Below the pieces are notes generated by a model, which saw only the letters and a program-made list of their open reading frames with translations, was not told the origin of the DNA and searched no databases. From IMG/VR virus record IMGVR_UViG_3300006038_000003, positions 1 to 38,984 of that record: a stretch of DNA of 38,984 bases; one strand, written 5' to 3'. The first letter of the stretch is position 1. Each line of letters begins with the position of its first letter. Shown piece after piece: positions 6,034-38,816 of the stretch. Source of the stretch: a virus. A program made the translations under genes and the position numbers.

Positions 6034-6202
6034 TGGTTTCGTTCCTTGATTGGAGAACTTCGACGGTCTTCGTCAGCGTTTCCGTGGCCATCTCGGCGCG
6101 CTGGACACGCTTGCCAACGAAGTAGGAGGCGACCGCCACCACAGCCACACAGAGAAGGCCCCCAGCAGCGATTTTGATCCATCCGGGGACGAGCGACCAC
6201 AT
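5879..6202 (-). CDS. Rz-like inner-membrane spanin
   Basis: The start at 6202 overlaps the endolysin stop (ATGA), giving 107 aa. One N-terminal TM helix (about 9-28, IKIAAGGLLCVAVVAVASYF) is followed by a charged, helical periplasmic domain with two cysteines. Nesting of a lipoprotein ORF in the +1 frame and position directly after the endolysin support the i-spanin call. Longer upstream in-frame starts lie inside the endolysin and were not used. Confidence 0.85.
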   Translation of the reverse strand: MWSLVPGWIKIAAGGLLCVAVVAVASYFVGKRVQRAEMATETLTKTVEVLQSRNETNVEITSSAAAELCAHYGLPDEERVECVRRVVQADADGRNRAQDHDGRPPIR

Positions 6203-6885
6203 CAGGACTTGACCTTCTGCCAGATGCCCCAGAGCGTGAGAGACAGGATCAATACCGCGACGATGACGCGCGCCCACTGCCCGCTCGTCAGTTCATCGCG
6301 CTGGCTGGAGACCGCGTCCACCACGTCGGGGATCGCGGGACCGATCGCAGCGCTGGCGCCGGCAAGACCAGTGCCGCCGATAACGGCCACGTCCTTCTTG
6401 GGTACGGCGCGAGCAGCTTCGACGGTATTGCTGGAAACGAACTCGCCCTTGGCCCAAAGTCCAGCTTCGGCAGCGCGGCGATTGACAAGCCCCTGCACGC
6501 GCTTGCCGCCAGCATTCACCCACTTCATGAGTTCGGCCGGCACGGCGTCGTAGTCGCCGGCGTTCAGCTTTTTCAGTAGCGTGGACTTGTGGAGAGCACC
6601 AGTGTTGAAGTCGAAGGAGACGAGAACGGCGAACTGATTGTCGGTCAGCGGAACCTTGACTAAGGAGTTCACGCGGTTTTCGAACTTGCGCAGATCATCC
6701 TTCAAGATGTCTTCAGCTTCCTTGTCGCTGATCCGCATGCCTTCGCGGACACGCGGGATGCCGGCCGCCGTGGTGTGGCCATATCCGATAGTCCAAATAC
6801 CGGCCACGTCTGGATATGCGACGAGCCGTTTGCCTTCCCACTGCATGATGTGTGAAAGCCCCGCCGCGGTGATGCGTCGTGCCAT
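6202..6885 (-). CDS. GH24 endolysin with C-terminal TM helix
   Basis: 227-aa lysozyme of glycoside hydrolase family 24 (T4/P22 lysozyme fold). The catalytic triad has the exact Glu-x8-Asp-x5-Thr spacing: Glu17, Asp26 and Thr32 within the WEGKRLVAYPD...GIWTIGYGHT segment. It cleaves MurNAc-GlcNAc bonds in peptidoglycan. After the domain (to about 150) comes an Ala/Gly-rich linker and a C-terminal hydrophobic helix (about 205-222). There is no N-terminal signal or SAR segment. The ribosome site is AAAGGA. A terminator for upstream genes lies 27 bp before the start. Confidence 0.92.
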   Translation of the reverse strand: MARRITAAGLSHIMQWEGKRLVAYPDVAGIWTIGYGHTTAAGIPRVREGMRISDKEAEDILKDDLRKFENRVNSLVKVPLTDNQFAVLVSFDFNTGALHKSTLLKKLNAGDYDAVPAELMKWVNAGGKRVQGLVNRRAAEAGLWAKGEFVSSNTVEAARAVPKKDVAVIGGTGLAGASAAIGPAIPDVVDAVSSQRDELTSGQWARVIVAVLILSLTLWGIWQKVKS

Positions 6886-25090: not shown

Positions 25091-26586
25091 CAGGCTACTT
25101 TCCAATCTGGGGAATCGTCATCGTCTTCCGGCTCTTTGAACCAGTCGCGCTGCGCATTGTCGTTTTTCTTGGTGTCCTTGATGACCACATACGGACGCGA
25201 CATGCAGGCATAGCGCGCCTCGTCGGCAATGTGGTCTTCACTGGTCGTGTCCAGGTCTTCGGGCCTGTTAGGGTCGTGCTGGAGCAACGGCACGGTTCGG
25301 ATGAAGTCCTTGCACGTCGAGAACACGTAGAGCCCCGGCCTATCGCCGTCGCCTTTCATGCGCCCACGCATCTGGTCCCAGCCACCCATCGCGCCATGTG
25401 CTGCAATGCGCTTGTTGTCAGCCGGTCTGAAAACCACCTTGAAATCAGTGGCGCGGGACAGGCGTTCATAGATCGACGGGCCGCCATCTTCACTGAAAAC
25501 AGCGGGGTCGAGCACGCCGTATGAGATGGCCTCCGTTGGAGGCTTGATCATCTTTTGGCCGTCGCTGAATTCCGCGCCTTCTCTAGTGGCTATACCAATG
25601 CCGACTTCTTCAGCCGTCAGCTTGAGGCCAACGTTCGCTTCACCTTCCTTGCAACCGTACCATTCCCGGTAACGAACGATCGAGCCGCGCGGTATCAACC
25701 CGCTTTCCGCCTGATAGTCGTCGCCGGCGATGGCCCACCAGCCGACAGAAAACGGTTTTGCCGAGCCCCAGTCCATGGAGCGAAACCGCGTCCAGTCCTT
25801 CGGCACAGCAAATGGCCGAACAATGTGCTTCGAGCTATTCCAGCAATCGAAGAACGCGCCTTCCACTGCATTCCAGTCGCCAGACAGCCACGCTTTAACA
25901 AGCTGCTCCGAGCCAACCAGATACAGGTTGTTGATGTATTCTGGGTCGTTCTCCAGCAGCAGCTTGTTATCCTGCACCCGGGATGGGATGTAGACATAGC
26001 GGTGCGTTTTCCCATTGGGCAGCAGCCGGGACAGCGGGACCATTCCCTGCGGCGCCTGATCAATATAGCGCTGCTTGATCCAGTGCTGTCCAGCGCCGCC
26101 GGGGTTGCCCGTCAGGATCAACTGCGTAGGAACGCCCCTTGCCGATCGAAGAACGCCAAACAGACGGTCAATCGGCTTACTGTCTGGATACAGGCCCGCT
26201 TCTTCAATGCAGGCGTCAGAGACGTTCTGTCCCTGATACTTGTCCGCATCCTGCACTCGCTCGAGTGGGCGAAATCGAAGCCGGCCGCCACCCGGGAAAG
26301 TCCATGTCTTCTTTTGGTCATTCCAGCCCGCGCCGATCTTGCCGTAAATCTCCTTGCTGCGGTCAATAGCGTCATCGAGCATCGGCAATTCGCGCCGGCA
26401 GAACAGAGCATTGAATGCGGAACCGTACATGGCTGCCTTAATGGCATACTTGCCCAGAACGCCGTCAGTCTTGCCACCACCGCGCGCGCCGCCGAAGAAT
26501 ATCTCTCTGTAAGGGCAATCAACCAGCGCGCTCTGTGGGCCCTCCTGCGGCGACCACGCAATGCGCCTAAGCTGGATTTGCCCCAT
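25090..26586 (-). CDS. terL: Terminase large subunit
   Basis: 498 aa. The ATPase domain has a Walker A GGARGGGKT at 32-40 and a Walker B-like DACIEEAG near 124-131. The C-terminal nuclease domain carries acidic residues in FRSMDWGSAKPFSVGWW, SYGVLDPAVF and DHIADEARYACM. It packages DNA into the prohead through the portal. It overlaps the small subunit gene by 20 bp upstream and the portal start downstream. P22/Sf6-like relatives package by a headful mechanism, so that mode is likely here. Confidence 0.93.
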   Translation of the reverse strand: MGQIQLRRIAWSPQEGPQSALVDCPYREIFFGGARGGGKTDGVLGKYAIKAAMYGSAFNALFCRRELPMLDDAIDRSKEIYGKIGAGWNDQKKTWTFPGGGRLRFRPLERVQDADKYQGQNVSDACIEEAGLYPDSKPIDRLFGVLRSARGVPTQLILTGNPGGAGQHWIKQRYIDQAPQGMVPLSRLLPNGKTHRYVYIPSRVQDNKLLLENDPEYINNLYLVGSEQLVKAWLSGDWNAVEGAFFDCWNSSKHIVRPFAVPKDWTRFRSMDWGSAKPFSVGWWAIAGDDYQAESGLIPRGSIVRYREWYGCKEGEANVGLKLTAEEVGIGIATREGAEFSDGQKMIKPPTEAISYGVLDPAVFSEDGGPSIYERLSRATDFKVVFRPADNKRIAAHGAMGGWDQMRGRMKGDGDRPGLYVFSTCKDFIRTVPLLQHDPNRPEDLDTTSEDHIADEARYACMSRPYVVIKDTKKNDNAQRDWFKEPEDDDDSPDWKVA

Positions 26587-27037
26587 GCTGCTTTTGCCAC
26601 TCTTCTTCGTTCATCGGCTTTGCGTTGACAACGAAGTCAAGCGCTCCAGTGAGGTCCACATCCAGCTTGTCGCCATAGACTTTCGGCCGGAGCTTCCCAG
26701 CCATCCATTTGCGGGCGTCTATCTGTAACCGGCGGTGTTCGATCATGTCGCCCTTGGAGACTTCGAGAACTTCGCCATCCTTATTCAGTTTGGTCTTCGT
26801 CCCCTCTATCGGCGTGTTCGCAATGTCTAGGATTTCATCAAAGAGAACATCAGCCTGGGCTTCGCGCGCACGCGCGTACTGGTCGCGGAACTCGTCGTGA
26901 GATGACAACCACCTAAACACCGTAGCCTTGTGAGGCATGTTATCGCTTGCGCAGATCGAATTAAGGCTTTTGCCCTCTGCCAAGCGTTCACAGATCGCGT
27001 CTGCGACTTTCACGCTGTATGATGAAGGTCTTGCCAT
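26567..27037 (-). CDS. terS: Terminase small subunit (Sf6 gp1-like)
   Basis: 156 aa. An N-terminal HTH region (VADAICERLAEGKSLNSICA, KATVFRWLSSHDEFRDQYARA) and central helical oligomerisation segment match the Sf6-type small terminase pattern. It recognises the packaging site and recruits TerL. The ribosome site is AAGGA. It is the first gene of the leftward late operon and is divergent from the plus-strand gene at 27127. Confidence 0.88.
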   Translation of the reverse strand: MARPSSYSVKVADAICERLAEGKSLNSICASDNMPHKATVFRWLSSHDEFRDQYARAREAQADVLFDEILDIANTPIEGTKTKLNKDGEVLEVSKGDMIEHRRLQIDARKWMAGKLRPKVYGDKLDVDLTGALDFVVNAKPMNEEEWQKQHGANPA

Positions 27038-27126
27038 TCGATATCCTTGACGAAGTTAAACCTGTACGTGCATATTCCGGCGGCCAACCGGCAACGCTAC
27101 GTTTACTATCGAAGAAGAAGAGACCT

Positions 27127-27411
27127 ATGAAATACTCTTACGACTTTCAGTACCTGCCCAAAGGTGCCGTTCGCCCATCCGATGATGGAGTGGTTGTTCC
27201 CGTCCAGACAGACGATGCCGGATTTCTTTTGGCACCAAATGTGGGCGACTATGTTCAGATGATTCAGATGGCAGACACGGAAGGCAACGCTCAGTTTGCT
27301 GGTAGAGTCAAATCGAGATTGTTCACCTACATGGGCGCGCAGCATTGCTCCGTTAATATCGTCATTGAAGAGGTTGACGATGCGATTTGGGGTTCACTGA
27401 TAAAAGAATGA
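27127..27411 (+). CDS. Hypothetical protein divergent from terS (94 aa)
   Basis: The start at 27127 is preferred because of the purine-rich GAAGAAG upstream; an extended frame from 27019 overlaps terS. The product is beta-rich (MKYSYDFQYLPKGAV, GDYVQMIQMAD, FAGRVKSRLFTYMG, VNIVIEEVDDAIWG), compact and without TM. It resembles small rhizobial hypothetical proteins. Its orientation opposes the late operon, so it is probably expressed in the lysogen or early. Confidence 0.65.
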   Translation: MKYSYDFQYLPKGAVRPSDDGVVVPVQTDDAGFLLAPNVGDYVQMIQMADTEGNAQFAGRVKSRLFTYMGAQHCSVNIVIEEVDDAIWGSLIKE

Positions 27412-27490
27412 CTCACGGCTAGGCGGGACGCTTCCATGTCTCGTCTGGCATCTAAGCAGACATTCATGGCACGGGCTGCGGAGAACTGGC

Positions 27491-28207
27491 ATGTCGGATG
27501 AGAAACTTCCTGATTATCCAAATAGTGACAATAGAAGTTTCGGTTATGAAGTCGCTCGTACCACGATTGACGCTGCTGCCTCTGCGATCCCCGGCGGAAG
27601 TTATGCGGTCGGTAAACTTGTTGAACGATTCGTCGCCGCTCCGTTGCAGAAGAGGCGCGACGAGTGGTTCGAGAGAGTTGGTGCTGGCCTTCGCGAGCTT
27701 GAAGAGCGGTTTGACGGGTTTGACCCCTCTTCGCTTGACGAGAACGAGGATTTCGTTTCCGCGGTATTCGAAGCGACCCAGGCCGCTATGAAGACTTCAC
27801 GCCACGAGAAATTAGAAGCTCTGCGTAACGGAATACTGAATATCGCTGCAGGCCAAACGGTAGACGAAATATTGCGAGGTACGTTCTTCTCTTATATTGA
27901 CAGGTTCAGTCCGGCTCACATCAGGGTACTGAAGTTGCTGTCAGACCCGGCCTCCTCCGAAGAGATGCGCGCATTCGCGCAGAACACGTACATGGGGTCT
28001 CAGCTAAGCGGATTGCAAAAAGCTATTCCTTCAAGCGAAATAGATTTTGCAGGTCTCAAAAGAATACTGGCAGAATTAGATCGTGAGGGCCTGGCGGATA
28101 GTGCCAGCATGCACGCAATGGGAACAAGCCAAGGCTTACTGTCTAAAAGATCAACCAACGACGGCGACGCTTTTCTTCGATTTGTCTCAAACCCTTTCGA
28201 GAAATGA
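27491..28207 (+). CDS. Helical accessory protein of unknown family (238 aa)
   Basis: The start follows GGAG by seven bases. A hydrophobic-amphipathic N-terminal stretch (SAIPGGSYAVGKLVERFVAA) is followed by a helical domain with segments APLQKRRDEWFERVGAGLRE, ENEDFVSAVFEATQAAM and HEKLEALRNGILNIA, then FSPAHIRVLKLLSDP. I recall these segments from standalone proteins in many bacterial genomic islands, without a function. It sits between terminase and early genes, outside the phage core transcription plan, as a likely cargo gene. A phage-defence role is a guess from context. Confidence 0.75.
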   Translation: MSDEKLPDYPNSDNRSFGYEVARTTIDAAASAIPGGSYAVGKLVERFVAAPLQKRRDEWFERVGAGLRELEERFDGFDPSSLDENEDFVSAVFEATQAAMKTSRHEKLEALRNGILNIAAGQTVDEILRGTFFSYIDRFSPAHIRVLKLLSDPASSEEMRAFAQNTYMGSQLSGLQKAIPSSEIDFAGLKRILAELDREGLADSASMHAMGTSQGLLSKRSTNDGDAFLRFVSNPFEK

Positions 28208-28229
28208 CCGGACAAGAATCCTCTCCCGA

Positions 28230-28243
28230 TCTTGCTCGGTGGT
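28230..28243 (+). repeat. 14-bp direct repeat, copy 1
   Basis: TCTTGCTCGGTGGT is repeated exactly at 28547-28560. The two copies bracket the small membrane protein gene at 28323-28541, which may mark insertion or duplication of that unit. Confidence 0.6.
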
Positions 28244-28322
28244 CAGCCCCTTCGCCAACCTTGCGCGAATGTCTCGTGCCGTGCATTCTTGAGTACTGGC
28301 ATGGGTAACCTTGAGGGATGGG

Positions 28323-28541
28323 ATGATCTGGGCTTCAGTCGTTTTCGGTGCGCTGTCTGCTGCTTCTTGGCTGCTATCCGCTGTGATTTCGCCAGTAATA
28401 ACGGCTACCTATTGGGATGGACCACCTGCCCCTCTAGTGAGGCGCATGAAGCTGGGGTCAGGCTTTAACGCAATCGGAGCGCTTTTCGGATCGATTGCTG
28501 TCGGCCTTCAGGCGTATTCAACATATCTCACGATGCCCTGA
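28323..28541 (+). CDS. Small two-TM membrane protein (72 aa)
   Basis: Hydrophobic helices at about 1-22 (MIWASVVFGALSAASWLLSAVI) and 48-68, with a Pro-rich loop (YWDGPPAPLVRRMKLG) between. The start at 28323 follows GAGGGATGGG. Similar YWDGPP-containing small membrane proteins are common in rhizobia, with unknown function. It is flanked by a 14-bp direct repeat and convergent with the zinc-ribbon gene at 28563. Confidence 0.65.
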   Translation: MIWASVVFGALSAASWLLSAVISPVITATYWDGPPAPLVRRMKLGSGFNAIGALFGSIAVGLQAYSTYLTMP

Positions 28542-28546
28542 CCCGC

Positions 28547-28560
28547 TCTTGCTCGGTGGT
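28547..28560 (+). repeat. 14-bp direct repeat, copy 2
   Basis: Exact second copy of the 28230-28243 sequence, six bases after the stop of the small membrane protein gene. Confidence 0.6.
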
Positions 28561-28562
28561 GG

Positions 28563-28805
28563 TCATGGGGTGGCGTAAATCCTGTGGGCACATACCGGGC
28601 AATCCACACTCAGGTAGTCACCGTCGCGCTGATCAGCGGTGAACTTCGCGTCACGGCGCTTGAATTCCACAATGGTCAAGCAGTTTCTGCATGTTGACCG
28701 GTAGGTTTTCTCTTCCGGCGCCTGTCCGCGCTTGATGATCTTGATCCCAGACGTGCCGCCGGCAGCATAGAGGTCTTCGCGCTGGTCGTAGACTTTCTCG
28801 CTCAT
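28563..28805 (-). CDS. Zinc-ribbon-like small protein (80 aa)
   Basis: The start at 28805 has GGAGAG just upstream and is preferred to the in-frame ATG 12 bases earlier. The C-terminal two thirds hold CRNC (about 39-42) and CPVC (about 70-73), a likely zinc ribbon with an intervening basic segment (VEFKRRDAKFTADQRDGDYL). It is downstream of and codirectional with the 113-aa gene, so the pair may be the distal end of the early leftward operon. Function unknown. Confidence 0.65.
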   Translation of the reverse strand: MSEKVYDQREDLYAAGGTSGIKIIKRGQAPEEKTYRSTCRNCLTIVEFKRRDAKFTADQRDGDYLSVDCPVCAHRIYATP

Positions 28806-28835
28806 CGCTCTCTCCATGTGGGCGGGTGAATGGGG

Positions 28836-29177
28836 TTAGGCGGCGACGGCCGGCGAACTGTAGTCGAAGAACCAGCCGTTGTAGTCTGCCGTCTCTGGCC
28901 CGAATTGCTCTGCCTTGGGCAATTCACCGATCTCGGCCCAATACTGCGGGGTGGCGCCGCAATAGAGCCGCTTGTCACCGTCGCCAGATATCTGCCAATC
29001 GCTGATCCATTCGCCCTTGGCATTGTCGGGATCGTAAGACGCCCAACCCTCTTGGGACTTGTAGAAGTTGACAGCCGATGCATCCCATCTGGCTTGTACA
29101 ATCCCGAAGTCAGCAGTGAGGACGAGAACCCACTGGCCATCCTTGGGCGCATTGTCCATGGTCTGCCAGTTGAGCAT
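28836..29177 (-). CDS. DUF551-like hypothetical protein (113 aa)
   Basis: The start at 29177 follows AGGGGATGAGTG. The opening LNWQTMDNAPKDGQWVLVLT, followed by aromatic-rich beta strands (WASYDPDNAKGEWISDW), resembles the short DUF551-type phage proteins whose pattern is W-x-x-[MI]-x-x-A-P-[KR]-D-G-x-x-[VI]-L. Function unknown. It lies at the left edge of a 510-bp stretch without genes. Confidence 0.65.
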   Translation of the reverse strand: MLNWQTMDNAPKDGQWVLVLTADFGIVQARWDASAVNFYKSQEGWASYDPDNAKGEWISDWQISGDGDKRLYCGATPQYWAEIGELPKAEQFGPETADYNGWFFDYSSPAVAA

Positions 29178-29687
29178 CACTCATCCCCTGAAACGTATGC
29201 AGCCCCACCTTGTTACGGGCGGGGCTGGTGAAATGGCTAACCGGCCTTATCAATCAAACAGATGAGATAGGTGGCCCGGCAGACCCTCTTTCTCCGTTGC
29301 TCCCTCTATTGAGGTAAGCCGAGCGCTTTCGCCTCTCGTGATATCTGCAGGCGACCGCTGGGCCGCTTATAGATGTTCGGTGTCGCAACTTGCTGCTATC
29401 CCAGAACAGCACCGAACATCATCGCCCGATTTGCTGCAAGCCGTTGATCCCTCAACTTACCCCGGGTTCTGTGCCAGCTTTCGCTACGAAACACAGACAG
29501 GCCGTTCGACTTGCATTCCGTTGCCCTGTTGGGCGAATAGCTGCCGGTATTTTACATAGCCCCGGCAGGCTCTCCTCTTTCGAGCTTCAGTGACGTAATA
29601 TCCCGGGAGCGCCAGTGCATCGCGCGACCTCAGATCAATGAAGACGTCAGTCAAGCCATATGAAGGCGGCGCTCCCGACCTTAGCAG
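29178..29687. other. Gene-free stretch with nested inverted repeats
   Basis: About 510 bp with no convincing gene on either strand; the plus-strand frames are short and lack ribosome sites and protein-like patterns. It contains four stem-forming repeats: AGCCCC/GGGGCT (29201-29206 and 29221-29226), an 11-bp perfect arm pair GATGTTCGGTG/CACCGAACATC (29372-29382 and 29410-29420), CTGCCGG/CCGGCAG (29541-29547 and 29562-29568), and a 10-bp pair CGGGAGCGCC/GGCGCTCCCG (29604-29613 and 29668-29677). This suggests a structured RNA, an operator or replication region, or a decayed insertion. None can be chosen from sequence alone. Confidence 0.5.
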
Positions 29688-30707
29688 TCAAACAAGAGAT
29701 GGGAGTCCCTCGAGGTGACCATTTTCCCCTTGTCTGAAATAGAGAATTTCTCCACCAGAAACCGCGACCTTGAGCCGTATGCCGAGGCTTCGAAAAACTT
29801 CCCGCTCATTATATGGAAGAATAGAACAAAGCGCCCGTCCTACATCAGTCAAAATGTACACTGGCACGGCCGGCCTACCATCATGGTTCGTAAGGGGACT
29901 ATTGCCATTTCCAAAAGAAATCGAATTGCTTTTCATGATCCCTATTCCAATGGAATCACCACTAAGATACCAGAAGGGTTCGCCGGTGCTCAAAAAAGCC
30001 TCAGTAAAGACGCTGAGATGTCCGGCAATTCCTGGATCGGCAATCAGCCCAGCGCTTATTAATGAAATTTTTTCGTGGAAAGCGAGGGTTCCGGCAATCG
30101 AAATCGCAATAGCGTTCCTATTAATTCTGGAAGCCGATAAACGCTCAAAAATTGCTGCAGTAGGAGCGTCAAGCTCATCAGTTGCACGCAAAACTTTTGC
30201 GCTGAACGTACCAGGTTTGCGTATCTCTGCCGAAAGAACTCGACCCCAGCGTTGACGAAGCTCATCAGAGGAAGCATCTTCGGCATAGCGCTCAAATGCG
30301 TCCATAAATTCTTCATCTATCGTCGAAGGCCCGTTTGAAGCCTGCTGTTCTGAAGGCGGGCTTGTCCGGAGATCCTCAAGCGCTTCCGCGACTACCGCAT
30401 CCTTGTTGATTTGTTGTCGACCAATTTTTTTGAAATGGCCTTCAAACGCCCTTTTAGCGAACTCGTCATCCAGGTTCATTCGGTCCAAGCCATATCTAAC
30501 CGCGGCATCAATTAGCTGTCGTTCACCTTCGTTCTTTGCCCTACGTCTTTGAGCAACCCCTTCCAACCAAGCGCTGCCGAGATCGACTGCGCCCCCAAGG
30601 AGCCGATCCATTGAGGATACAGCTCTACTTTTTGCGGAAGCCTTGACACCAGTTTCGGTAAGCTCCGCTGATATGGAAGTTTCGCTATCAAGATGATCTT
30701 CACTCAT
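29688..30707 (-). CDS. DUF2806-like accessory protein (339 aa)
   Basis: The start at 30707 follows a G-rich GAAGGGGAAGGG; an upstream in-frame ATG lacks a ribosome site. The pattern fits DUF2806 as I know it: a helical N-terminus, FAKRAFEGHFKKIGRQQINK, then the signature DEEFMDAFERYAEDASSDELRQRWGRVLSAEIRKPGTFS split over about 135-175, and a beta-containing C-terminal domain that may sense a ligand. The family has no proven activity but recurs in genomic islands. The gene is visibly A+T-rich relative to its neighbours. It is likely cargo of the prophage, possibly defence-related. Confidence 0.75.
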   Translation of the reverse strand: MSEDHLDSETSISAELTETGVKASAKSRAVSSMDRLLGGAVDLGSAWLEGVAQRRRAKNEGERQLIDAAVRYGLDRMNLDDEFAKRAFEGHFKKIGRQQINKDAVVAEALEDLRTSPPSEQQASNGPSTIDEEFMDAFERYAEDASSDELRQRWGRVLSAEIRKPGTFSAKVLRATDELDAPTAAIFERLSASRINRNAIAISIAGTLAFHEKISLISAGLIADPGIAGHLSVFTEAFLSTGEPFWYLSGDSIGIGIMKSNSISFGNGNSPLTNHDGRPAVPVYILTDVGRALCSILPYNEREVFRSLGIRLKVAVSGGEILYFRQGENGHLEGLPSLV

Positions 30708-30823
30708 GCCCTTCCCCTTCGAGGAGTACATGATCATCGATCAAATGATTCCGAGCAACCTGTGTGACAGAGCTATATTGCTTTAGCTTTAAATCGCTGT
30801 GAATAGCCCCGGCTCTTCAGCCG

Positions 30824-31438
30824 CTACGCAGCGGGTATTTCTTCGGAGGCTGTCCACGAACGCAAACCCGATCTTATTGATTTGCCCTCGTGTTTTGCCT
30901 CTTCGTGGGCCACCTGTAAACCGGCCTCAAAGGGCCAGATTGTTCCGCTCTGGCGAACGCCATCCTCAATTATTTGCAACGACCGAACAATCCACCGCTG
31001 CACTGTTCGTTTAACCCACGCCTTTTTTTGCGGGTTTCGACGGTTCCGATTGGTGAGATACCGGCTCCAGTCCCATCCGCGGGCCTTCACCTCGGCATAT
31101 GCAAGCAAAACCTGGCGGGCTTCTTCATCCCAGATGAAGCGCCTGATCCAGTCAAATGCTTCTTCCATCCGAGATATCCGTTCCCTTGAACACTTGGCAC
31201 GGCGTTCGGTTCTGCGGCGCTCAGCTGCAACCATATCTTTCTTCCACCGGCCGCCGTCTGCGATGTCTTCACGTTCACGGGCGAAGTTTTCCGCCGGCGT
31301 GTGGATGTAATCCGGCATGGATGATCCGAAGGACTGCGGCCCGACGCGCACCGGTAAGGCGATATCGGTTTCGAACGCTTCAATCAGTCGCTCGAGAATG
31401 CTGTTTTGCGCTTCGGTCACGGATGCGTTTTTGCTCAT
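30824..31438 (-). CDS. DUF6362-like HTH protein, end of early operon
   Basis: 204 aa. A basic N-terminal half (REREDIADGGRWKKDMVAAERRRTERR) is followed by a helical region (RISRMEEAFDWIRRFIWDEE...LLAYAEVKARGWDWSRYLTN) and KKAWVKRTVQRWIVRSLQII, which looks like a helix-turn-helix with a recognition helix. The arrangement resembles DUF6362 proteins, small phage proteins with a transposase- or sigma-like HTH. It is the last gene of the overlapping early leftward operon and a candidate late regulator, by position only. Confidence 0.65.
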   Translation of the reverse strand: MSKNASVTEAQNSILERLIEAFETDIALPVRVGPQSFGSSMPDYIHTPAENFAREREDIADGGRWKKDMVAAERRRTERRAKCSRERISRMEEAFDWIRRFIWDEEARQVLLAYAEVKARGWDWSRYLTNRNRRNPQKKAWVKRTVQRWIVRSLQIIEDGVRQSGTIWPFEAGLQVAHEEAKHEGKSIRSGLRSWTASEEIPAA

Positions 31439-34681: not shown

Positions 34682-34751
34682 CCAATCAACACATATTTAA
34701 CTTGCGTCCTCTAAATGACCCGCAATAGTGTTGCGTTCAGAGGTGCATTGC

Positions 34752-35432
34752 ATGAGTGACGAAGCAAAAGACGGCGCAGAAAAACAAAGAGCACTCGCGA
34801 GAGGCGGAGAGATAAGACGCGCCCGAGAAGCGAAAAACATGAGCCAGGCCGACTTGGCTGTGGCGACGGGCGTTTCTCAACAAACCATAGACAGGATTGA
34901 GCGTGGCGCGGTGCTTCACTCGCGTTCATATCCAGTCCTTCGGCAGTATCTGCAGTTAGATATTCTCGGCTACGACACGTGGCCCTACGAGGAAGGCGAG
35001 AACCCCGGCTATCGGAAAAGTTCGTTAACTCAGTCTCTTAGGGAGGGCGCTGCTGTAGAGAAGGTGTTTACAGGGATGATACCAGTCATCTCCAACCGAG
35101 GCGGCACTATCCATCTGGCAGACGCTATACCGAAAGTATTCCCGTTCGAATTCGCTGACGGCGTGACTGCGTTTCTCGTTACCGATAGCGAGATGGAGCC
35201 GGTTTTGAAGGTAGGAGATATCGTCGTTGTTAATCCGCATATACCTCCTCGAATTGGCGATGAGGTTGCGTATGCGAGGGACAGTATTGCTTACATCAGG
35301 ACGTTCGTTGCAGAGCATGATGACCACTGGCTTGTAAAAAGTTGGAACCCTGAAACCGAGACGAAAGTCCTTAAGGGCCAATCGCTTAAAGACCTTGATG
35401 TCATAGTCGCAAAATATAATCGCAATCGGTAA
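34752..35432 (+). CDS. CI-like repressor with degenerate S24 domain
   Basis: 226 aa with the start at 34752. N-terminal HTH_3/XRE domain (about 20-54: GEIRRAREAKNMSQADLAVA, SQQTIDRIERG) and C-terminal LexA/S24-like domain (about 110-225: VTAFLVTDSEMEPVLKVGDI, GDEVAYARDSIAYIRTF). In active S24 repressors the motif is G-D-S-M-E-P and a later Lys is the base. Here the motif reads DSEMEP at 145-150, so an ungapped alignment puts Glu where Ser is expected, and Arg183 replaces Lys. The domain probably dimerises but may not self-cleave. It should maintain lysogeny by binding the flanking repeats. Confidence 0.88.
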   Translation: MSDEAKDGAEKQRALARGGEIRRAREAKNMSQADLAVATGVSQQTIDRIERGAVLHSRSYPVLRQYLQLDILGYDTWPYEEGENPGYRKSSLTQSLREGAAVEKVFTGMIPVISNRGGTIHLADAIPKVFPFEFADGVTAFLVTDSEMEPVLKVGDIVVVNPHIPPRIGDEVAYARDSIAYIRTFVAEHDDHWLVKSWNPETETKVLKGQSLKDLDVIVAKYNRNR

Positions 35433-37514: not shown

Positions 37515-37882
37515 GCGTCTTGCCGGAATGGACAAAGGCAATGCTTCCAGTCGGGATGGATGACGCCGCAACGCTGTTGGGCGTCTCCCGTCGCTTCCTT
37601 ACCAATCTCGTCAAGACCCATCGGCACTATGAGAAGCGCGGGGCAAAGAAGGTTTTTTACCCCGAGCACATCGTTTTGCTGCGGGAAAGCTTGAAGGAGA
37701 AATCCCCGTGTCGAACCTCGAACTCAAACAGCGCAACGGGGTCTGGTACGCGTCTGGCACAATCGCCGGCCAGCGCATACGAGAAAGCCTTGGAACTCGC
37801 GACAAGAAAGTCGCAGAAGAACTCCGGGCGCAATACGAAGCGCGCGTCTGGAAACGTCATACCTATGGCGAGGAAGCCGTAA
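37511..37882 (+). CDS. Excisionase-like HTH protein overlapping int
   Basis: 123 aa. The N-terminal half is a winged-helix/HTH (about 15-56: GMDDAATLLGVSRRFLTNLV, YEKRGAKKVFYPEHIVLLRE) like phage excisionases and MerR-type HTH_17 proteins. The C-terminal half (about 66-123) is Ser/Asn/Lys-rich, ends in GNVIPMARKP, and is read from the same 175 bp that encode the integrase N-terminus in another frame. The basic tail resembles those of rhizobial int-associated HTH proteins as I remember them, so the long overlap may be genuine. A directionality-factor role is inferred from the fold and position. Confidence 0.65.
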   Translation: MSVLPEWTKAMLPVGMDDAATLLGVSRRFLTNLVKTHRHYEKRGAKKVFYPEHIVLLRESLKEKSPCRTSNSNSATGSGTRLAQSPASAYEKALELATRKSQKNSGRNTKRASGNVIPMARKP

Positions 37883-38748
37883 GGCTGTTTGAAGAAGCGG
37901 CGACGAGCTACATGCGGCAGGGCGGCGAGGCCCGGTTCCTGCCGCCGATCATCAAATACTTCAAGGGGAGGGCGGTCGGCACCATCAAGCCGGCCGAACT
38001 GCGTTCTATGGCGCTGACGGTTTTCCCGACTGCGGCACCGGCCACCCGGAACCGCCAGGCTATCGTTCCCGCGCGCGCCGTGATGAACCATGCCCATGAT
38101 CTGGGGTGGTGCGGCGCTATCAAGGTGAAGATGTTCGAAACGCCGAAGTCGAACAAGCATCAGCCGGTTGACCGGAAGTGGCTGGATGCCTTCCTTGCGC
38201 AATCCGACAAGGACAAGCTGTGGCATCTTTCGGCGCTAGTGCTGTTCATGAACCAGACGGCGGCCCGCGTGTCGGAAGCCGTGAACCTCATGGGCGAACA
38301 CGTCGACCTGTCGGAACGAGTGGCCGTTCTGGCCAAAACGAAGACGGAAGAATGGTCGGTGCGGCACCTGACGGCCGAACTCGTTTCAAGAATGGCGGGG
38401 CTGGATATCCAGAAGGGGGAGCACGTTTTCAGCTATACGGACCCGAAGTCCGTAAACAAGCGCATCGCAGCGGTTTGCGATCGGGCGAAGATCGAGAAGA
38501 GAACGACCCATTCCGCTGGGCGGCATTCGTTTGGCACGAACGCCATGAAGCTGCCAGACGCGGATATCAAGATGGCGATGGACGCCGGCGGCTGGAAGTC
38601 TGCAAAGCTATTTTTGGAAACCTATGTGCACAGCAAGAACGCTGGCAAAACGCTTGCGGAAAAGCTCGACAAGCAAAATGGGCTCATTGGCACAGATTTG
38701 GCACAGCCCAAAGAGAAGAAGGCATATCGTTTTGGAAAGAAAGGGTAA
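37708..38748 (+). CDS. int: Tyrosine recombinase (phage integrase)
   Basis: 346 aa; GTG start with AAGGAG eight bases upstream. The N-terminal arm-binding and core-binding domains (about 1-150) are followed by a catalytic domain with the full set of residues: Arg187 (TAARVSEA), Lys210 or Lys212 (AKTKTEEW), His268 and Arg272 in HSAGRH, Trp296 (GGWKS) and the nucleophile Tyr306 (ETYVHS). It recombines attP with the tRNA-Thr attB. The gene ends 19 bp before the attR core, and its 3' end carries candidate arm sites. Confidence 0.95.
   Translation: MSNLELKQRNGVWYASGTIAGQRIRESLGTRDKKVAEELRAQYEARVWKRHTYGEEAVRLFEEAATSYMRQGGEARFLPPIIKYFKGRAVGTIKPAELRSMALTVFPTAAPATRNRQAIVPARAVMNHAHDLGWCGAIKVKMFETPKSNKHQPVDRKWLDAFLAQSDKDKLWHLSALVLFMNQTAARVSEAVNLMGEHVDLSERVAVLAKTKTEEWSVRHLTAELVSRMAGLDIQKGEHVFSYTDPKSVNKRIAAVCDRAKIEKRTTHSAGRHSFGTNAMKLPDADIKMAMDAGGWKSAKLFLETYVHSKNAGKTLAEKLDKQNGLIGTDLAQPKEKKAYRFGKKG
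38687..38708 (+). promoter_or_regulatory. Possible right arm-type integrase sites
   Basis: TTGGCACAG (38687-38695) and TTTGGCACAGCCC (38697-38709) lie in tandem 12 bp apart, inside the 3' end of int and about 60-80 bp from the attR core. The second matches 224-233 at the left end over ten bases. Confidence 0.35.
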
Positions 38749-38767: not shown

Positions 38768-38816
38768 CCTTGGTAAGGGAGAGGCCGAGAGTTCAAATCT
38801 CTCTAGCAGCACCATT
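38768..38816 (+). repeat. attR core (49-bp direct repeat)
   Basis: Exact copy of 72-120, representing the 3' half of tRNA-Thr displaced by integration. It is not a functional tRNA, because the acceptor 5' strand, D arm and 5' anticodon stem are missing. Confidence 0.95.

What the first reader, a model, noticed from the sequence alone, without database searches (positions are those of the whole stretch)
27127..30707. Accessory block between terminase and early operon
Three plus-strand genes and three minus-strand genes, including a DUF2806-like protein and a 238-aa helical island protein, interrupt the otherwise leftward gene order. Gene direction, base composition of the DUF2806-like gene, a 14-bp direct repeat and a gene-free stretch all suggest stepwise cargo insertion. 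The DUF2806-like and 238-aa proteins are both of kinds I associate with genomic islands.
Basis: partly seen in the sequence, partly recalled or inferred. Interest (0 to 1): 0.55.

Follow-up and report, generated by a model that had tools for sequence, protein, structure and literature searches.

The report
Phage cargo slots around structured RNA
Between its early genes and its DNA-packaging genes this bacterial virus carries swappable extra genes, and the seemingly empty stretch among them is a conserved, folded, uncatalogued RNA-like element that sits at the same junction in many otherwise different viruses of root-associated bacteria.

Summary
The block is real. The window is a prophage record (integrase, repressor, att repeat). 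None of the six block proteins was found in the seven nearest records, while TerS/TerL stay 63-97% identical; one of them (L002) also keeps p204/p141/p158 at 91-96%. Cargo exchange is well supported; the DUF2806 and 238-aa genes look like ordinary morons.

Window 29346-29430 (minus) is an 85-nt structured, probably pseudoknotted RNA-like element with strong covariation (14 of 25 pairs with two-sided changes; shuffles 4.8). It has no Rfam match. I hold 22 distinct sequences of it; in 19 of 20 loci examined a terminase large subunit gene follows on the same strand, best matching several different profiles. Five of 13 scanned genes in the slot before it are NusG-family. With a hairpin and two boundary strings it forms a noncoding scaffold between whose parts cargo is swapped; the "14-bp repeat" is a second copy of one boundary string.

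Most likely it is an optional module of a late-operon leader RNA controlling late transcription. That function is inferred. Against it: four of six loci with one NusG type, and four loci with p204 relatives, lack the module.

The parts
29346..29430 (-). Late-leader RNA module (LLR): outer stem, long hairpin with inner hairpin, loop CUGGG pairing with downstream CCCAG (pseudoknot)
   Evidence: 26 CM matches in 28 sources; covariation; no Rfam match
29431..29537 (-). 5' domain of the leader: TTCGCCCAACAGGGCAACGGAATGC (29513-29537) and a closing stem TGCAAG/CTTGCA (by eye)
   Evidence: the 25-nt string is identical in window, L002, L003/L008, L089, L115, L118; the stem reads TGCGAGG/CCTCGCA in L003, L089, L115, L118
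29200..29227 (-). Hairpin T, CAGCCCCGCC-loop-GGTGGGGCTG, downstream of the LLR
   Evidence: fold -20.9 kcal/mol, z -4.66; exact in L002, L003/L008, L084, L089, L091 and on an Agrobacterium plasmid; 15 Agrobacterium plasmid records; no T run
28803..28819 (-). Boundary string C (ribosome-binding site and start, CCATGGAGAGAGCGATG)
   Evidence: found with at most 2 mismatches at 10 places in 9 phages, before mostly different genes
28546..28566 (-). Boundary string B (ATGACCACCACCGAGCAAGAG, would read MTTTEQE)
   Evidence: 21/21 identical in 9 phages; frame ends within 20 codons in 7 of 9
28227..28244 (-).
28246..28302 (-). Relic: 5' stub of a terminase-small-subunit-like gene (MPVLKNARHETFAQ...)
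   Evidence: longer open frames with the same start in L075 and L081; a stub also in L002; the terminase likeness is read by eye
27127..27411 (+). Cargo gene, 94 aa, phrog_12676 (unknown function)
   Evidence: E 1.5e-32
27491..28207 (+). Cargo gene, 238 aa, helical in a poor model; distant relatives in a Pseudomonas phage and on plasmids
28323..28541 (+). Cargo gene, 72 aa, hydrophobic (reading from sequence)
   Evidence: open frame only; no Pfam hit above cut-off for the longer 76-aa frame
28563..28799 (-). Gene in the slot between C and B, 78 aa, phrog_2834
   Evidence: E 2.3e-10
28836..29180 (-). Gene in the slot between hairpin T and C, 114 aa, no family
29688..30737 (-). Cargo gene, 349 aa, DUF2806, between p204 and the leader RNA
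   Evidence: PF10987 E 1.5e-12; absent from L002, where about 240 bp without detected similarity lie there
30824..31438 (-). p204, phrog_6836: gene in the late-regulator slot; candidate late regulator
   Evidence: phrog_6836 E 2e-12; DUF6362 only below cut-off

Best explanation
The interval is the early-to-late junction of a temperate phage of Rhizobiaceae. Its recurring parts are noncoding: a modular structured leader RNA on the late strand (5' domain, pseudoknotted LLR, hairpin T) followed by short boundary strings C and B, in the same order in nine phages. Unrelated cargo genes are exchanged between these landmarks, some against the late direction (moron type). Proposed mechanism: transcription from the early side passes the late-regulator gene (a NusG-family protein in some phages, p204 here), then makes the leader RNA; the folded RNA helps load or retain regulator and RNA polymerase so that the terminator-like hairpins that follow, and the long cargo and late operon, are read through. 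Shown: structure by covariation, position, order, cargo turnover. Inferred: that it is transcribed as a leader on this strand, that it acts in cis, that p204 is the regulator, and antitermination itself.
For: Covariation: 96.2% of cells paired, 14 of 25 pairs with two-sided change against 4.8 (sd 1.4) in shuffles and at most 4 in slid versions; 10 pairs on a plain MAFFT alignment of 11 sequences. Position: TerL downstream on the same strand in 19 of 20 loci examined, with six different best-scoring terminase profiles, some of them related to each other. Neighbours: 5 of 13 scanned slot genes carry PF02357 NusG; three of these five were also scanned with PHROGs and hit 'transcription antiterminator'. 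Terminator-like hairpins follow the RNA in L095, L096, L112 (by eye). Scaffold order in nine phages. Cargo turnover.
Against: Of six loci with the L112-type NusG gene four lack the LLR (best 10.8 bits with filters off), though all six keep a conserved stretch after the gene. Four genome loci with p204 relatives at about 50% (L062, L064, L065, L069) show no LLR in the 1.3-1.5 kb held after them. Of the seven nearest records only L002 has an LLR that the model sees. No promoter enrichment upstream: 4 of 20 against 2.7 expected. Covariation does not tell the strand (10 G-U against 11 A-C cells). Single-sequence folds are only mildly better than shuffled in most (z -0.3 to -3.5 in eight). The pseudoknot helix has one covarying pair. 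Hairpin T has no T run. L108's NusG gene is not adjacent. L097, a weak match, shows no TerL nearby.
Confidence: 0.5

Rival explanations
1. Ordinary moron block: the six genes are independent lysogenic-conversion cargo, and the noncoding DNA between is only spacer or promoter DNA of these genes.
For: Cargo not found in relatives; low GC3 of four genes; promoter-like TTGACG-18-CATATT at 27047 upstream of the plus genes.
Against: The spacer is kept where the genes are not, and covaries across phages with other cargo. The promoter scan found 1 site against 3.0 in shuffles.
Confidence: 0.13
2. The LLR is a separate trans-acting small RNA, comparable to the short RNA that lambda makes in front of its late genes (recalled), ended by the following hairpin.
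For: Terminator-like hairpins directly follow the LLR in L095, L096, L112 (by eye).
Against: In L070 (annotated gene) and L072 (209-aa frame) a gene starts 31 and about 21 nt after the RNA, as for a 5' leader. No consistent promoter upstream.
Confidence: 0.15
3. The LLR is a small mobile structured insertion (REP/MITE-like), tolerated at this junction.
For: Presence/absence next to very similar flanks: L127 and L132 have it, L128-L131 do not. The copy in L132 is weaker (50.7 bits).
Against: One copy in each of eight whole virus records searched, and the junction position in 19 of 20 loci; in 297 Rhizobiaceae genomes five strong matches and one doubtful one, one per genome. Compensatory changes show selection on the fold.
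Confidence: 0.15
4. The LLR is a self-cleaving ribozyme that processes the phage transcript.
For: Pseudoknot with long nearly invariant unpaired strings; hammerheads are known at phage-like genes of Agrobacterium (PMC3088659, passages).
Against: No match to any Rfam family even at E<=5; cleavage cannot be tested here.
Confidence: 0.07

Closest known systems
LoaP (NusG paralog) and the dfn leader RNA hairpin of Bacillus velezensis (PMC12691694, passages read)
   Same: NusG-family antiterminator, structured leader RNA, then intrinsic terminator, then a long operon
   Different: LoaP recognises a small UNCG-type hairpin; here an 85-nt, probably pseudoknotted module at a phage late operon, and in the window no NusG protein but p204
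HK022 put RNA (PMC9378689, abstract start in search listing)
   Same: A phage RNA element that lets polymerase pass terminators is the proposed role
   Different: put serves early genes and acts alone; its fold is recalled to be different; the LLR lies before the late genes
Lambda Q and the late promoter region (PMC6606751, abstract start in listing)
   Same: Position: last early gene, short noncoding region, then late genes (lambda order recalled)
   Different: Q acts at a DNA site in the late promoter; here the conserved feature is an RNA-like fold and no promoter was found
GOLLD and ROOL ornate RNAs (PMC12286853, abstract start in listing)
   Same: Structured noncoding RNA; here tRNA genes lie at the junction in L115, L110, L065, L003. 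Their phage and tRNA links are recalled
   Different: Recalled to be several hundred nt and to have Rfam families; no Rfam match here
Lambdoid morons and boundary sequences (recalled)
   Same: Foreign cargo, partly in opposite orientation, inserted at conserved joints
   Different: Here the landmarks include a conserved structured RNA

Membership tests
Moron (cargo genes of the block) | Present in one phage, absent from close relatives at the same place | tested here: met
   0 of 6 block proteins in L002-L008 at E<=1e-5
Moron (cargo genes of the block) | Composition unlike the phage | tested here: inconclusive
   Low GC3 in DUF2806 0.43, p238 0.51, phr12676 0.52, TM72 0.51; not in znr78 0.70, p114 0.72
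Moron (cargo genes of the block) | Own promoter and terminator | tested here: inconclusive
   1 promoter-like site (27047 +) against 3.0 expected; terminators 3 against 5.7
Moron (cargo genes of the block) | Expressed from the prophage | not testable with these tools
   needs RNA-seq
DUF2806 (PF10987) | Score above the curated cut-off | tested here: met
   48.3 bits against 24.5; profile positions 10-100 of 221 matched
Known Rfam family | Match at the family's gathering score | tested here: not met
   Only the tRNA at 44-115; none at E<=5 in 27000-31000; only tRNAs, in four of ten related loci
LoaP-type antitermination | NusG-family protein encoded with the target operon | tested here: not met
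   Window p204 has no NusG hit; 5 of 13 scanned slot genes do
LoaP-type antitermination | Intrinsic terminator in the leader | tested here: inconclusive
   Hairpin T without T run in the window; terminator-like by eye in L095, L096, L112
LoaP-type antitermination | RNA-dependent read-through | not testable with these tools
   needs in-vitro transcription
HK022 put | Read-through without phage protein | not testable with these tools
   needs in-vitro transcription

The most novel reading that the evidence does not exclude
A new class of pseudoknotted phage RNA module that plugs into late-operon leaders of Rhizobiaceae phages and works with interchangeable late regulators (NusG paralogs, phrog_6836 and others of unknown function): an exchangeable RNA part for late-gene antitermination, kept or moved while terminases, regulators and cargo are swapped around it.
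Probability: 0.4. Interest if true: 0.8.

Novelty: new variant of a known kind. Interest (0 to 1): 0.6.

Why it matters
Late-gene control is little understood in phages of Rhizobiaceae (my judgement, not from a call). A covarying RNA-like element at the head of the late operon, shared by phages with different terminases and different regulator-slot genes, gives a concrete handle: it marks the junction, points to the gene just upstream as candidate late regulator (p204/phrog_6836 and others of unknown function), and makes antitermination directly testable. It also shows how cargo exchange may work at one locus: noncoding landmarks, one of them a ribosome-binding site, between which genes are swapped without breaking the operon.

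Tried and rejected
Direct homology of the 238-aa protein and the DUF2806 protein: none. Defence-system models: no convincing hit (best E 0.032). The search for related loci for both proteins in viral contigs: none confirmed. Structures: AlphaFold of the 238-aa protein alone (mean pLDDT 38.4) and of p204 with four sequences (44.0) are too poor, so I ran no fold search. 16S rRNA likeness of ATGCAAGTCGAACG in the leader: noticed from memory; taken as coincidence because the homologous string in L003, L089, L115 and L118 differs there. R2 in 397 genomes of the order: 0 matches, but without a positive control in the set. Prediction that NusG genes of the L112 type are always followed by the LLR: failed in 4 of 6. 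Promoter search upstream of the RNA: no enrichment. Weak genome hits L098-L100 (25-29 bits) set aside as chance; L086 and L114 are false pattern matches. One search used a wrongly written structure (outer stem one column off); one search replaces it.

Literature: ten searches. In the rows listed (titles and starts of abstracts) I saw no paper describing this RNA; the lists are capped and the library lacks most subscription journals. Passages of two papers were read. DUF2806 occurs in two papers, both on E. coli with mcr genes (listing only).

My confidence in the best explanation was lowered from 0.55 to 0.5 on checking, because the p204 relatives without LLR had been left out.
Full report
WHAT THE WINDOW IS. 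The window is a virus record of 38,984 bases, a prophage: tRNA-Thr at 44-118, a repeat of its 3' part near 38768, an integrase at 37708-38748 + (PF00589), an S24-type repressor at 34728-35432 + and a lysozyme at 6202-6885 -. Early genes and late genes are both read leftwards; terS (Sf6 type, PF20901 E 9.2e-45) lies at 26567-27037. That the host belongs to Rhizobiaceae is inferred from relatives.

THE OBSERVATION. GC: DUF2806 gene 0.490 (GC3 0.43), 238-aa gene 0.508, 94-aa gene 0.484, against 0.558 for the window; znr78 (0.570) and p114 (0.580) look native. The direct repeat is real.

IS THE BLOCK VARIABLE? TerS of the window found 41 viral loci. tblastn of 24 window proteins (terL to the right end) at E<=1e-5 shows, in the seven nearest records (L002-L008), TerS 63-97% and TerL 77-97% identical, and none of the six block proteins. 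L002 keeps p204, p141 and p158 at 91-96%; L006 and L007 keep p158 only (69%, 65%); L003 and L008 keep neither p141 nor p158 and only a p204 at 25%. Nucleotide comparison with L002: homology stops at window 27047 and resumes at 30807; between lie short conserved islands: 28246-28326, 28542-28573, 28802-28835, 29188-29236 and 29347-29547, the last (93%) the only long one. The DUF2806 gene lies between p204 and that last island; L002 has about 240 bp without detected similarity there. So the genes are exchanged and the islands between them are kept.

THE ISLAND IS A STRUCTURED RNA-LIKE ELEMENT. Part of 29347-29547 also matched Rhizobium phage RHph_Y1_10, in an unannotated gap, and three genomes. 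Reading the minus strand, six sequences gave a common fold with compensatory changes. With eleven sequences and a structure that includes a pseudoknot (loop CUGGG with CCCAG; a C-G in place of U-A in two), 96.7% of cells pair and 10 pairs have two-sided changes against 2.4 in shuffles. Pattern scans of viral contigs and a covariance model (R1) gave 26 matches at E<=0.01 in 28 sources, L003 and L114 being without; 11 of the 26 had built the model. Of 22 distinct rows, 96.2% of 548 cells pair, 14 of 25 pairs have two-sided change (shuffles 4.8, sd 1.4; slid versions at most 4), covariation score 0.236 against 0.090. These rows were aligned to the model, which leans towards its structure; one search used a plain MAFFT alignment. 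The pseudoknot helix alone rests on one covarying pair. Ungapped length varies (84-87, once 91 nt), which argues against coding. Limits: 10 G-U against 11 A-C cells, so covariation does not give the strand; z-scores of eight single sequences are -0.3 to -3.5. Rfam: no match in the window region even at E<=5.

DISTRIBUTION. R1 in 297 genomes of the family of Rhizobium tubonense: 9 with a match at E<=0.01; I accept five strong ones (59-95 bits) and G344 (33 bits) with doubt, and set aside three (25-29 bits). R2 in 397 genomes drawn from the order: none, without a positive control. Among 50,697 phage records only RHph_Y1_10 matched by blastn. Many relatives lack it: of L002-L008 only L002 has one that the models see.

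POSITION. I examined 20 loci reaching far enough for a TerL downstream on the same strand. Nineteen have one: window and L002, L070 (annotated), L073, L084, L087, L088, L089, L109, L115, L116, L118, L119, and L091/L120, L110/L121, L112/L122, L111/L123 (same RNA sequence as L095), L108/L124, L096/L125. L120's best profile (phrog_5902) is of unknown function, with terminase phrog_2 second. L097/L126, the weakest match, shows none in its open frames (not HMM-scanned). L074, L113 and L117 end too soon; L072/L090 were judged only by likeness to L088. Best-scoring terminase profiles are phrog_979, 15, 38, 4758, 3717 and 9; some overlap on the same proteins, so they are not six independent lineages, but the element clearly does not go with one terminase type.

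THE GENE BEFORE IT. Of 13 regulator-slot genes scanned, five carry the NusG domain: L095/L111 (8e-17), L096 (9e-15), L112 (8e-11, with KOW), L118 (2e-9), L108 (1e-5); three of these were also scanned with PHROGs and hit 'transcription antiterminator'. In L108 the gene ends about 950 nt before the RNA, with another frame between; in L118 about 650 nt; in the others 165-180 nt. Eight have no NusG hit: window p204, L115 and L003 (phrog_6836), L070 and L109 (phrog_15385), L073 (phrog_37864), L089 (phrog_21451), L072 (phrog_9306); L109 and L003 were scanned with PHROGs only, and L003 has only the divergent element. Slot genes of the other loci were not scanned. I take the slot as that of the late regulator (inference).

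TESTS THAT FAILED. Loci with the L112 NusG-like gene: six including L112's own record. All six have a conserved stretch of about 170 nt after the gene and then a terminator-like hairpin (by eye). The LLR is present in L127 (L112's record) and L132 (50.7 bits), and absent from L128-L131 (best 10.8 bits with filters off). A search with the L118 protein found only its own record. Likewise four genome loci with p204 relatives at about 50% (L062, L064, L065, L069) have no LLR in the 1.3-1.5 kb held after them. So the LLR is an optional module. This weakens any claim that it is required for antitermination and leaves the insertion-element reading open.

THE SCAFFOLD. Downstream of the LLR lies hairpin T (CAGCCCCGCC-8 nt-GGTGGGGCTG; z -4.66), exact over 26 nt in window, L002, L003/L008, L084, L089, L091, with one change in L115 and readable in L118, and in 15 Agrobacterium plasmid records at 94-97% over about 35 nt. 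Then boundary string C, a ribosome-binding site at ten places in nine phages before mostly different proteins, and string B, identical over 21 nt in nine phages though its reading frame ends within 20 codons in seven. The order (LLR or its variant, then C, then B, then the terminase genes) is the same in window, L002, L003, L084, L089, L091, L110/L121, L115 and L118 (coordinates); T was not found in L110/L121, and L003 has a divergent element that the model does not recognise, whose likeness I read by eye. These nine are the loci in which I found C and B, out of all loci held. Genes in the slots differ: p114 in the window, a DUF3307-like frame (name recalled) in L003, a 183-aa frame in L084 and L089, a tRNA-Gln in L115. 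This fits several steps of exchange.

THE CARGO. DUF2806: nearest full-length relative 43% in Paracoccus phage vB_PkoS_Pkon1, another 40% in a genome of the same family as R. tubonense, weaker ones on plasmids. The 238-aa protein: 29% in a Pseudomonas phage, 26-38% on six plasmid records. Their function remains open; lysogenic conversion or exclusion of other phages is my guess, and no call supports it.

VERDICT. Selection for the fold is well supported (I put 0.9 on it); its function as a late-transcription leader is the most likely reading (about 0.5) but untested.

Noticed in passing
L127-L132, about 170 nt after the NusG-like gene: A second conserved noncoding leader (86% mean column identity over seven sequences incl. 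L095) between the NusG-like gene and a terminator-like hairpin; no Rfam match in L112; covariation not tested.
   Followed up: partly
near L002 6185 (+), L108 487 (-), L110 325 (-), L081 2996 (-): Another conserved string (ending GGTCCGACTAGGGCA, up to 2 changes) near the same junction in L002, L108 and L110: perhaps a further leader module.
   Followed up: partly
L075-L081; window 28246-28302: The first 14 or so codons of an MPVLKNARHE small-terminase-like gene survive in several genomes with unrelated sequence after about the same codon: a recurrent breakpoint or a functional site (packaging or attachment?).
   Followed up: partly
window 28546-28566 and eight other phages: String B is 21/21 identical though its frame is usually truncated: selection on DNA or RNA rather than protein.
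   Followed up: no
L115 6220-6295, L110 36-112, L065 2213-2283, L003 5539-5610: tRNA genes lie in the same junction of four phage-like loci; L065 has no LLR.
   Followed up: no
L107 2501-2535 (Agrobacterium plasmid pAtAF1_95): Hairpin T occurs in a noncoding region some 600 nt before a vapBC pair.
   Followed up: no
window 72 on and 38768 on: Attachment repeat: 3' part of tRNA-Thr repeated beside the integrase gene; the record seems a whole prophage.
   Followed up: partly
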